Virus record (IMG/VR): IMGVR_UViG_3300022680_000058
Coordinates: 83,980-147,979 of that record
Direction: 5' to 3' (one strand)
DNA: 64,000 bases
DNA from: a virus
The notes beneath the pieces are model-generated. The model searched no databases, was not told the DNA's origin, and saw only the letters and a list, made by a program, of their open reading frames with translations. The first letter of the stretch is position 1. Every line of letters begins with the position of its first letter. This document shows, one piece after another, positions 26,500 to 64,000 of this stretch. The position numbers were made by a program, and so were the translations under genes.

Positions 26500-26865
26500 T
26501 GGAGGCGGTCAGAGTCGAACTGACGTCCACACCCCCTCTGCTCGTGAGCTCTACGTGCGTATCTCCTGATCAATCTCGGCGTCATCGAGTTCAGGAGCAA
26601 ACTCTCTGAGCCAGTCGTGCGAGATGTCAGCCGCGCAGGTTACAGAATGAGTCACACACGAGACACTCACTCACTACGCGCCGCTAATGGCGCCCCTTGT
26701 TCCCATAGCAGCAGTCTGGGAGGGACGTGAGATTACGCCGCCAGGCTCATCTCAGGATAGCTGTCAGTGTTGGCAACTGGTTGTTCGTCCTGTTTGACGC
26801 ACAAGGACGATCCTCGGCACGCTCACACAAACGTCATGGGATCTGTCGAAACCTTTTTCGCCCCC
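26500..26865 (-). ncRNA. ssrA: Transfer-messenger RNA (tmRNA)
   Basis: The 5' end GGGGGCG (26865-26859) pairs with the 3' CGCCTCC to form the alanine-tRNA-like acceptor stem, with A as discriminator; CCA is not encoded. A perfect T-arm (GTCAG-TTCGACT-CTGAC) lies just inside the 3' end. The tag frame starts at GCC 26774 and reads ANTDSYPEMSLAA followed by TAA (26735-26733). The start follows the tRNA-like part by a normal distance and the tag ends in LAA, the degron recognised by ClpXP in bacteria. tmRNA with SmpB rescues stalled ribosomes. The tag middle differs from the common ANDENYALAA, so it is not a simple copy of the enterobacterial gene. Total length 366 nt, typical of bacterial tmRNA. 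Confidence 0.92.
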
Positions 26866-55421: not shown

Positions 55422-56624
55422 CTACAGGTGCGGAGGCTCCTTGGCGCCGGGGAAGAGCTTCCTCCCCGTTACGTGGACCTGTTTGAGACCTTCTTTGGAG
55501 TCGGGGTCGACTGGAAGCCTGACGACCTTTCCGTCACCGTCAGGACTCTTCTCGATCTCGACGAGGTTCTCGGCTTCGAGTTCATTGACGATCTGTCCCA
55601 GGCTCTTCTCATCAAGCTGAGCCATCTCCATGAACCAGACGAGTCCTTTCGCGTCCAGTCCAGGTTTTTTGATCTGCAACTCCTGAAGGAGCTTTTTTTT
55701 CGCCATGGCGAGGTATTGAGGTGTCATCTCGATCTCTGGAGAGAGTTTCACCTCACCCTCGGGGACATTCGGTTCGAGCTCCCCGGAATACACCACAACG
55801 AATGAACCATCATCCTTCTCCTCGAAGACCAGAGCACCCATGGCGACCATATCGAAGATGATACTGGCAAGGTTTTCCGAAGCGATAACCCCAGAAGCGA
55901 GAACAAACACATCGCGTTCTGTGAGCCCACCTGGAGCGACATCCCGAGCTCTTCTGAGGAGTTCTGATTGGAATTCTCTGGTAATAATGCCAAACATAGC
56001 GTCAAGGGGCAGAGTCTCTATCTCCTGAGCCTTTTTGAAGAGCTTGCTTGCCTTCACCTGTTCCTCGAACTCGGGAGTGTCTGGCTTGTGGTGCGTGATA
56101 GTAACAGGACCACCATCACCATCATCGGTGGCATCCATCATGAGGTCGGCAGCAGACCCGACGATAACCCAAGACCTGTCACCTCGTGGCCCGAACTCAC
56201 GAAGAACTCCCTGACGCGTCAGTCGAGCGAGTCCGCTCCGGACAGTCGACGGGTTGGCGTTCGGCTTGATCTTGCGGACCTCATCGACAGCATCTTTGAA
56301 GCTGAAGGTGTCCATCACGGTATCTTTGATGAGCTGCCGAAGGACAGTGATCACTCCCCTGTCTCTCTTCTTCGGTTCTTCGGACTTCTCGCTGTCGGCG
56401 TCCCCACCGAAGATTGCTTCGAGCTCCTTGATCTGTTCATCGACTTCGCTGAGCTCGGCTTCGATGGTGACTTTCTTTTTCAGAAGTTCCTCTTTCCTCT
56501 CCCGAAGGACATTGAGGCCAGCATTCGCCTCATCGAGCCTCTCTTGCTTTCGCTGTTCCTCACGCTTTTTGAATTCCTTGAAATCGAACAACTCTTCCTC
56601 CGCTACAAAGCAAAACGTTTCCAT
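55422..56624 (-). CDS. Coiled-coil protein with winged-helix repeats
   Basis: 400 residues. The N-terminal 80 residues form a strong coiled-coil (LNVLRERKEELLKKKVTIEA). Two or more winged-helix-like segments follow (SGLARLTRQGVLREFG; VNELEAENLVEIEKSPDG). Likely a dimeric DNA-binding regulator. It heads a long minus-strand operon. The palindrome CAAACGTTTG (56640-56649) sits upstream and may be its own operator. Confidence 0.6.
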   Translation of the reverse strand: METFCFVAEEELFDFKEFKKREEQRKQERLDEANAGLNVLRERKEELLKKKVTIEAELSEVDEQIKELEAIFGGDADSEKSEEPKKRDRGVITVLRQLIKDTVMDTFSFKDAVDEVRKIKPNANPSTVRSGLARLTRQGVLREFGPRGDRSWVIVGSAADLMMDATDDGDGGPVTITHHKPDTPEFEEQVKASKLFKKAQEIETLPLDAMFGIITREFQSELLRRARDVAPGGLTERDVFVLASGVIASENLASIIFDMVAMGALVFEEKDDGSFVVVYSGELEPNVPEGEVKLSPEIEMTPQYLAMAKKKLLQELQIKKPGLDAKGLVWFMEMAQLDEKSLGQIVNELEAENLVEIEKSPDGDGKVVRLPVDPDSKEGLKQVHVTGRKLFPGAKEPPHL

Positions 56625-56706
56625 AAACCTAAATCATCACAAACGTTTGTCAAGGTATTATGACAGCCATCTCACACCTGATTACAGGGGGAAGTATTTT
56701 TTCGTC

Positions 56707-56826
56707 TTGTCAACGACTTACGGATGCCCATAATGGGTGGTGCATGCGGCGGGACTACTGATACAAGCTCCTTTCCATGATGCCCCAGGGGTCGACAATG
56801 GCTGCGCTCCCTGGGGTTTTCTTTTT
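56707..56826 (+). ncRNA. Small RNA unit 1 (promoter to terminator)
   Basis: Promoter TTGTCA (56707-56712), 16 bases, CATAAT (56729-56734). Predicted RNA about 56741-56826, ending in a terminator with stem CCCCAGGG/CCCTGGGG and a T tract (56817-56826). It contains GGGACTACTG (56751-56760), shared with unit 3. Confidence 0.6.
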
Positions 56827-56835
56827 CACCCATCC

Positions 56836-56937
56836 TTGACATTCCATCCTCAGAGGATAAGTTGATCTACAGCCGATGGTCGCGGTGCCATGCACGCCGC
56901 AGTCACCCCCTGGGGATGGGCCTCAGGGGGTTTTTTA
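56836..56937 (+). ncRNA. Small RNA unit 2 (promoter to terminator)
   Basis: Promoter TTGACA (56836-56841), 16 bases, TAAGTT (56858-56863). RNA about 56870-56937, ending with CCCCCTG/CAGGGGG and TTTTTT. It includes CATGCAC, complementary to GTGCATG in unit 1. Confidence 0.6.
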
Positions 56938-57031
56938 TTGACAGAGCATAATCGATGCACATAATGTGACTGTTGGTTGAGGGACTACTGGCCTGGCCCC
57001 CTGGGAATGGTTCTCAGGGGGCTACTTTTTT
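56938..57031 (+). ncRNA. Small RNA unit 3 or attenuated leader
   Basis: Promoter TTGACA (56938-56943), 16 bases, CATAAT (56960-56965). RNA about 56972-57031, ending with GCCCCCTG/CAGGGGGC and TACTTTTTT. The T tract abuts AAGGAG, the Shine-Dalgarno sequence of the gene at 57044, so it could also be an attenuator of that gene. Confidence 0.6.
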
Positions 57032-57043
57032 AAGGAGCACAGA

Positions 57044-57244
57044 ATGTCAAACGATCCAATCGTGGTCGAACTCACCAGAGAGGAAGCCCAAGCCCTGGCC
57101 GACTCCACAAAGGAAACCATCTGGTTTTTGAAAGGAGCGAAATCGAAGTCGAGCAGTGGAAGGGTGAGAAAAGCCCTCAAGGACGTTCGAGATCGACTCC
57201 TGAAAGGGCTTCAGGATGTGAAGGGTTCCAGTGCCTCATCGTGA
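57044..57244 (+). CDS. Small helical protein downstream of RNA array
   Basis: 66 residues. ELTREEAQALADSTKETIWF is a helix, then a basic helix (SSGRVRKALKDVRDRLLKGL). AAGGAG lies nine bases upstream of the ATG. Expression should depend on read-through of the terminator at 57031. Function unknown. Confidence 0.6.
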   Translation: MSNDPIVVELTREEAQALADSTKETIWFLKGAKSKSSSGRVRKALKDVRDRLLKGLQDVKGSSASS

Positions 57245-63259: not shown

Positions 63260-63912
63260 CAAAGTGTTTTGGATGTGGAAGAGACCTCGACCATGGCCAC
63301 GATTTCAACTACGGAACTGCTGATCTCGCCGGTGAAAGCAGAAGTTTCTGTGGACGCAACTACCAATACAACAAAGGCTGCTTCATGAAGGCGCTGAAGC
63401 GGCTCCATGATGATGGGCTCTGTGTCATCTGTGGGGAGCAGAATGACTACTACGCCCCAAGCGGCCCTTGTCACAGGTGTCGAGACAAACTCACATTCGC
63501 CGAAAAGTACCAGCACGAGCCAGCAAGAATCCAGCAAGACGCCATGGAAAAGCTCGCTTACGGACTCGCCAACTACTCTCGATATGGCAAAGAACCAGGA
63601 CAATTGAGAGACCGCTGGCCAGTAATCCTCCTCAAGGACTGTAATGAGGAACTCTCCAGGGCGCTCCTGACATGCCTCAGAGACCTCTGGGAGCTCGACG
63701 TCTCACAGTCACAGGAGAAAGGATTTCAAGAAGGAGCAGACCTCCTCAGAGGCCTCAAGGCTGGAACGATCGGACTCTCCAACTTTCAGGAGAAGGTGGA
63801 AAAGTCTCACAACCGGTGGTCCGACTACGAAAAAGATCGGCGCGGCAAGATTCAGGAACTTCTCGCCATGGCCCTGAAGCTCAAATCAACCGAGGCTAGA
63901 GATGATCTTTGA
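63256..63912 (+). CDS. Protein with multiple zinc knuckles
   Basis: 218 residues. CFGCGRDL and later CVICGEQN...CHRC form two or more zinc sites in the first 80 residues. The rest is helical. It is immediately upstream of the third LPEDVQVAWD gene. Confidence 0.65.
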   Translation: MTKCFGCGRDLDHGHDFNYGTADLAGESRSFCGRNYQYNKGCFMKALKRLHDDGLCVICGEQNDYYAPSGPCHRCRDKLTFAEKYQHEPARIQQDAMEKLAYGLANYSRYGKEPGQLRDRWPVILLKDCNEELSRALLTCLRDLWELDVSQSQEKGFQEGADLLRGLKAGTIGLSNFQEKVEKSHNRWSDYEKDRRGKIQELLAMALKLKSTEARDDL

Positions 63913-64000
63913 CCTTCCCGAAGATGTCCAAGTTGCTTGGGATCATCTCCTCGAAGACGGGGATGACCCAGAGATTTTGGCGCCCCTCATTCTGGCTCTT
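63902..64000 (+). CDS. LPEDVQVAWD-family protein, copy C, cut by window edge
   Basis: The visible 33 residues (MIFDLPEDVQVAWDHLLEDG, then DDPEILAPLILAL) are almost identical to the heads of the proteins at 48714 and 49049. It overlaps the upstream gene by 11 bases. Whether it also has an RS tail lies outside the window. Confidence 0.7.
   Translation, partial: MIFDLPEDVQVAWDHLLEDGDDPEILAPLILAL

What the first reader, a model, noticed from the sequence alone, without database searches (positions are those of the whole stretch)
56707..57031. Array of three tandem promoter-terminator units
Three consecutive units each have a -35, a 16-base spacer, a -10 and a G/C-rich terminator with T tract, spaced only 1-9 bases apart. 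Predicted RNAs are 86, 68 and 60 nt. Units 1 and 3 share GGGACTACTG; units 1 and 2 have complementary 7-mers. These look like a small-RNA array, or serial attenuators for the small gene at 57044.
Basis: partly seen in the sequence, partly recalled or inferred. Interest (0 to 1): 0.8.

Follow-up and report, generated by a model that had tools for sequence, protein, structure and literature searches.

The report
Three-unit small-RNA array in a phage
An uncultured bacterial virus carries, in 325 bases between two genes, three back-to-back 'start-stop' transcription units that should make only short RNAs of 60-86 bases; this looks like a compact small-RNA array whose last member also gates a tiny gene, but no RNA data or close relative is available to prove it.

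Summary
The array is real. In a 419-bp intergenic stretch of an uncultivated tailed phage (148-kb IMG/VR record), three intrinsic terminators are each preceded by a sigma70-like promoter. None of 2,000 dinucleotide shuffles gave even two such terminators. P1 (10/12) and P3 (11/12) are among the phage's best promoters; P2 has a perfect -35 but a poor -10 (TAAGTT). Of 32 strong promoter-like sites in the contig, only P1 and P3 run into a strong terminator. Terminators 2 and 3 are duplicates (22/25 identical) with one compensatory base-pair change. Units 1 and 3 share promoter-core sequence and GGGACTACTG (13 of 5,000 shuffles).

Terminator 3 ends directly before the Shine-Dalgarno of a 66-aa gene, so that gene needs read-through.

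Best reading: a duplicated small-RNA array whose last unit doubles as a leader/attenuator; serial attenuation alone is the main rival. Nothing like it was found in about 0.9 Mb of distant relatives or by pattern in IMG/VR, but the closest relatives held do not reach this region. RNA target and function are inferred only.

The parts
56707..56734 (+). Promoter P1: TTGTCA-16-CATAAT
   Evidence: 10/12 consensus match; GATGCNCATAATG core shared with P3
56741..56826 (+). Predicted RNA1, about 86 nt, with terminator T1 (stem 56783-56816, then TTTTCTTTTT)
   Evidence: terminator hairpin -19.9 kcal/mol; no ORF with a Shine-Dalgarno found downstream of P1 within 150 nt
56751..56760 (+). Shared motif GGGACTACTG, copy 1 (starts 16 nt after the -10)
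   Evidence: shared 10-mer in 13 of 5,000 shuffles
56836..56863 (+). Promoter P2: TTGACA-16-TAAGTT (weak -10)
   Evidence: 9/12 by the scan; missed by the stricter scan
56870..56936 (+). Predicted RNA2, about 67 nt, with a 5' hairpin GCGGTG/CGCCGC and terminator T2 (stem 56905-56931, then T6)
   Evidence: fold z = -2.09; terminator -19.9 kcal/mol
56938..56965 (+). Promoter P3: TTGACA-16-CATAAT
   Evidence: 11/12, among the best promoter-like sites in the contig
56971..57031 (+). Predicted RNA3, about 61 nt, with terminator T3 (stem 56994-57024, then CTTTTTT)
   Evidence: fold z = -2.86; terminator -21.8 kcal/mol; T3 is 22/25 identical to T2 with one compensatory pair
56981..56990 (+). Shared motif GGGACTACTG, copy 2 (starts 15 nt after the -10)
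57032..57244 (+). Shine-Dalgarno AAGGAG (57032-57037) and 66-aa gene (57044-57244), directly downstream of T3
   Evidence: weak relative of the second half of a 114-aa protein in the phage G014 (34%, E = 4e-4 for the single comparison); predicted helical hairpin, pLDDT 71
55422..56624 (-). Divergent 400-aa gene upstream of the array; weak relative in G014

Best explanation
A compact array of three short-RNA genes on the + strand, set in a stretch where most genes run on the - strand. RNA polymerase with the host's main sigma factor starts at P1, P3 and, more weakly, P2, and stops 60-86 nt later at an intrinsic terminator, giving three discrete RNAs. The array probably grew by duplication of units: T2 and T3 are copies, and P1 and P3 share the promoter core and GGGACTACTG in nearly the same register. 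The RNAs act as regulators during infection, with GGGACTACTG as the likely shared contact site in RNA1 and RNA3 (by base pairing or protein binding). RNA3 also serves as the leader of the 66-aa gene, which can be expressed only when polymerase reads through T3. Shown: the sequence signals, their excess over chance, the duplication and the position of T3. Inferred: transcription, the discrete RNAs, their action in trans, and the role of the motif.
For: Three promoter-terminator pairs against at most one in 2,000 shuffles. Only P1 and P3 of 32 promoter-like sites at or above 10/12 lead into a strong terminator; many of the others have an ORF with a Shine-Dalgarno 7-30 nt downstream. The contig has only about six compact G/C-rich terminators of about -20 kcal/mol or better, and three lie here. 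T2/T3 homology with a compensatory G-C to A-U pair. Shared 10-mer and promoter core in units 1 and 3, while the sequence between them differs. P1 and P2 have no gene between them and their terminators.
Against: No expression data. No array found in the relatives searched or by exact pattern in IMG/VR. P2 has a poor -10. Motif GGGACTACTG shows no better pairing with the phage's own translation starts than shuffled motifs (13 of 60 as good). RNA1-RNA2-RNA3 pairing is not above chance. No Rfam family reached its threshold here.
Confidence: 0.55

Rival explanations
1. Serial attenuators: the three promoter-terminator units together are the regulatory leader of the 66-aa gene. Transcription from P1-P3 is mostly stopped and a phage or host antitermination event lets it through late or under a given condition, as at lambda PR'-tR'. 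The short RNAs are by-products.
For: T3 ends 1 nt before the Shine-Dalgarno and no promoter lies between T3 and the gene, so the gene must be read through T3. All units point at the gene. Lambdoid late promoters use exactly a promoter, a short leader and a terminator that Q overrides (PMC6606751).
Against: Two further promoter-terminator pairs upstream add little to control of one gene; T1 and T2 lower rather than raise its expression. No -10-like pause element was evident by eye just downstream of P1 or P3. No antiterminator gene was sought or identified. The shared GGGACTACTG lies in the transcribed part rather than in the promoter spacer.
Confidence: 0.27
2. Remnants: duplicated promoter-gene-terminator cassettes for small phage genes, two of which have lost their reading frames, leaving promoter next to terminator without function.
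For: Many promoters of this phage sit about 20 nt before a small gene, and large phages often carry small genes each with its own promoter (own knowledge: SPO1 host-takeover module). P2 is weak. The array is not found in relatives.
Against: T2 and T3 differ by 3 of 25 bases and two of these form a compensatory pair, which fits selection on the hairpin; the shared 10-mer outlived its diverged surroundings; three of three terminators remain strong.
Confidence: 0.13
3. A site for starting DNA replication, with the short transcripts as primers.
For: Tandem promoters next to an A/T-rich stretch (56600-56720).
Against: The terminators would cut such primers off; no change of GC skew is seen at this place in the 2-kb profile; no other origin hallmark was sought.
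Confidence: 0.03

Closest known systems
LhrC1-5 multicopy small RNAs of Listeria monocytogenes (PMC4132741)
   Same: Several related small RNAs, each with its own promoter, sharing a short motif (UCCC) that pairs with targets
   Different: Bacterial, conserved, expression and targets shown; here phage, only two of three units share the motif (GGGACTACTG), and nothing is shown by experiment
Brt/Trp loci of Bartonella henselae (PMC5387305)
   Same: A short, highly transcribed RNA directly upstream of a poorly transcribed small regulator gene; proposed to act in trans and as a cis switch, like RNA3 and the 66-aa gene
   Different: One RNA (194-203 nt) per gene, nine separate loci; the downstream protein has a helix-turn-helix, whereas the 66-aa protein is predicted as a plain helical hairpin
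GraL, the leader RNA of greA in E. coli (PMC6829880)
   Same: Premature stop in a leader gives a small RNA that acts in trans and also in cis on its own gene
   Different: Single unit, bacterial, verified
Lambdoid late control region PR'-tR' (Q antitermination; PMC6606751)
   Same: Phage promoter, short leader RNA, intrinsic terminator, then gene
   Different: One unit; needs QBE and a -10-like pause site, which were not found here by eye; controls all late genes, not one small gene
Highly transcribed non-coding RNAs of lytic myophages: Listeria phage CKA15 (PMC12282133) and Staphylococcus phage 515A1 (PMC7698491)
   Same: Non-coding RNAs made from early-type promoters of virulent myophages; in CKA15 three neighbouring ones
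   Different: CKA15 RNAs lack canonical intrinsic terminators and 515A1's regions are over 500 bp; no tandem promoter-terminator array is described in the passages read

Membership tests
Tandem small-RNA array (works like LhrC1-5) | Each unit has its own promoter | tested here: met
   P1 10/12, P3 11/12, P2 9/12 with a poor -10
Tandem small-RNA array (works like LhrC1-5) | Each unit ends in an intrinsic terminator | tested here: met
   -19.9, -19.9 and -21.8 kcal/mol with T tracts; 0 of 2,000 shuffles have two
Tandem small-RNA array (works like LhrC1-5) | Units are related and share a pairing motif | tested here: inconclusive
   T2/T3 homologous, units 1/3 share GGGACTACTG; unit 2 lacks it
Tandem small-RNA array (works like LhrC1-5) | Discrete RNAs are made | not testable with these tools
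   no RNA data
Tandem small-RNA array (works like LhrC1-5) | Trans targets paired by the shared motif | tested here: inconclusive
   phage translation starts show no excess pairing; host unknown
LhrC family itself, or any Rfam small-RNA family | Covariance-model match at gathering score | tested here: not met
   only the tmRNA matches in the window; weak sub-threshold hits only in the array
Transcription attenuator of the 66-aa gene | Terminator between promoter and ribosome-binding site | tested here: met
   T3 57031, Shine-Dalgarno 57032-57037, ATG 57044
Transcription attenuator of the 66-aa gene | Conditional read-through (antiterminator structure or factor) | tested here: inconclusive
   the fold of 56968-57090 shows only the terminator hairpin as a strong element; protein factors were not tested
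Q-dependent late promoter (PR'-tR') | -10-like pause element in the initial transcribed region and a QBE between -35 and -10 | not tested
   only looked at by eye; criteria from PMC6606751

The most novel reading that the evidence does not exclude
A virulent phage of an uncultivated bacterium carries a dedicated, duplicating array of promoter-terminator small-RNA genes that act in trans on host RNAs or an RNA-binding protein through GGGACUACUG, while the last copy doubles as a read-through gate for a small protein.
Probability: 0.3. Interest if true: 0.65.

Novelty: new variant of a known kind. Interest (0 to 1): 0.42.

Why it matters
Small RNAs of virulent phages are poorly known; in the passages read here none is described as a tandem promoter-terminator array. 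If confirmed, this would show that such phages can carry multi-copy small RNAs in the way bacteria do, and would give a compact system in which trans-acting RNAs and attenuation of a neighbouring gene come from the same units. It also matters for annotation: gene callers skip this stretch, and promoter-terminator pairing is a simple way to find more.

Tried and rejected
RNA1-RNA2-RNA3 pairing: within shuffles; complementary 7-mers: 680 of 5,000 shuffles. Motif targets among the phage's own translation starts: no excess. Rfam: nothing above threshold. Protein reading of the array: only small frames overlap it and no Shine-Dalgarno-led ORF was found downstream of P1. DNA relatives in GenBank phages: none. 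Relatives of the 66-aa, 400-aa and UvrD proteins by single-sequence scan of IMG/VR: none. Relatives by major head protein: 23 IMG/VR contigs and one 183-kb contig in a Phycisphaerae MAG; array DNA not found in them beyond short chance matches. Exact patterns for the units in IMG/VR: none. Structure of the 66-aa protein: helical hairpin, no significant structural match in the viral library. A CRISPR-repeat mimic and CsrA decoys were considered from the sequence alone and dropped as unsupported, not tested.

Full report
Setting. The window is bases 83,980-147,979 of a 147,979-base IMG/VR virus record. It encodes a tail sheath, tape measure, major head protein, UvsX-like recombinase, DnaB-like helicase and UvrD-like helicase and a tmRNA, so it is a large contractile-tailed phage. 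No DNA relative was found among GenBank phages. The major head protein found 23 IMG/VR contigs at 63-79% identity and one 183-kb contig in a Phycisphaerae MAG. The last is only a hint at the host, since phage contigs are easily mis-binned.

The observation. Between the 400-aa gene (55422-56624, minus) and the 66-aa gene (57044-57244, plus) lie three units, each a sigma70-like promoter with a 16-nt spacer followed by an intrinsic terminator. P1 and P3 match 10 and 11 of 12 consensus bases. P2 has TTGACA but only TAAGTT, so the strict scan misses it. The terminators fold with -19.9, -19.9 and -21.8 kcal/mol. In 2,000 dinucleotide shuffles of the intergenic stretch, 28 had one such terminator and none had two; one shuffle had a single promoter-terminator pair. 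Promoter-like sites of at least 9/12 occur at 0.016 per 45 nt per strand, so three pairs in a row are not an accident of a promoter-rich genome.

The array is also odd within its own genome. Of 32 promoter-like sites at or above 10/12 in the contig, only P1 and P3 run into a strong terminator; many of the others are followed by an ORF with a Shine-Dalgarno 7-30 nt downstream. In about 0.9 Mb of related phage contigs, none of the strong compact terminators listed (14, 11) had a promoter-like site in the 110 nt upstream. Those phages are often richer in G+C and may use other promoters, so this is a comparison, not a proof.

Signs of descent and selection. T2 and T3 are 22/25 identical; two of the three differences are the two sides of one base pair (G-C to A-U), so the stem is kept. 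With only two sequences this is a single event and the tool's shuffle control cannot weigh it. Units 1 and 3 share GATGCNCATAATG around the -10 and GGGACTACTG 15-16 nt further on, with unrelated sequence between. The shared 10-mer is reached in 13 of 5,000 shuffles. It occurs nowhere else in the contig.

The downstream gene. T3's T tract ends at 57031; AAGGAG begins at 57032 and ATG is at 57044. No promoter fits between, so the gene depends on read-through of T3. The gene is plausibly real: good Shine-Dalgarno and a weak relative in the 114-aa protein encoded just upstream of the 400-aa gene's relative in the 191-kb phage G014. In G014 this neighbourhood lies all on one strand and carries no array in the sequence read. 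The 66-aa protein is predicted as a helical hairpin at modest confidence (pLDDT 71) with no significant match.

Mechanism. P1 and P2 have only a terminator and then another promoter downstream, so short RNAs are their only evident product. That, the duplication and the shared motif favour a small-RNA array (0.55). Unit 3 must also act as a leader/attenuator. Serial attenuation of the 66-aa gene as the sole purpose (0.27) explains unit 3 but makes units 1 and 2 wasteful. Remnants of lost small-gene cassettes (0.13) would explain the lack of conservation but not the preserved stems and motif. Transcription, stability of the RNAs and targets were not tested; no pairing excess with the phage's own translation starts was found, so a target, if any, may be in the host, which is unknown.

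What is known. Multi-copy small RNAs with a shared motif are known in bacteria (LhrC1-5, PMC4132741). RNAs that are both small RNA and gate of a downstream gene are known (Brt/Trp, PMC5387305; GraL, PMC6829880). A phage promoter-leader-terminator gate is known (Q, PMC6606751). Abundant non-coding RNAs of lytic myophages are reported (PMC12282133, PMC7698491), the former without canonical terminators. Memberships in named families are not claimed; Rfam finds none.

Limits. The closest relatives by head protein are fragments; the one matching nearest to the window start (G019, 72% over the 628-1104 ORF) shows no match near the array, so conservation could not be tested at the distance where it would be informative. 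The search tools may leave out records very near the window's own.

Noticed in passing
window 63902-64000 and the first 99 bases of the contig (L002:1-99): The two ends of the 148-kb contig are a perfect 99-bp inverted repeat; either terminal inverted repeats or an assembly artefact.
   Followed up: no
56613-56620 and 56641-56648: Two AAACGTTT palindromes 28 bp apart upstream of the divergent 400-aa gene, near a minus-strand TTGACA-16-TAGGTT; only five such sites in the contig, two here. Looks like an operator.
   Followed up: partly
26500-26865, minus: Phage-encoded tmRNA with tag ANTDSYPEMSLAA; the relative G024 also has one, tag ANDNGTVAQRLAA (L086:1047-1424).
   Followed up: no
L037:12347-16669 and L038:187-2498 (G014): The relative G014 carries 37 tRNA genes while ARAGORN finds none in this phage's scanned pieces.
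   Followed up: no
58774-58685, minus: Possible fourth promoter-terminator pair (TTGACA-16-TACGTT, terminator -20.0 kcal/mol), but directly after the end of a gene, so probably that gene's terminator.
   Followed up: partly
60252, 62278, 32032 (plus) and others: Many phage promoters read TTGACA-16/17-TAnnnT followed by GGTGA(A/G)AG and a start codon about 20 nt downstream: a very short leader with a recurring sequence.
   Followed up: no
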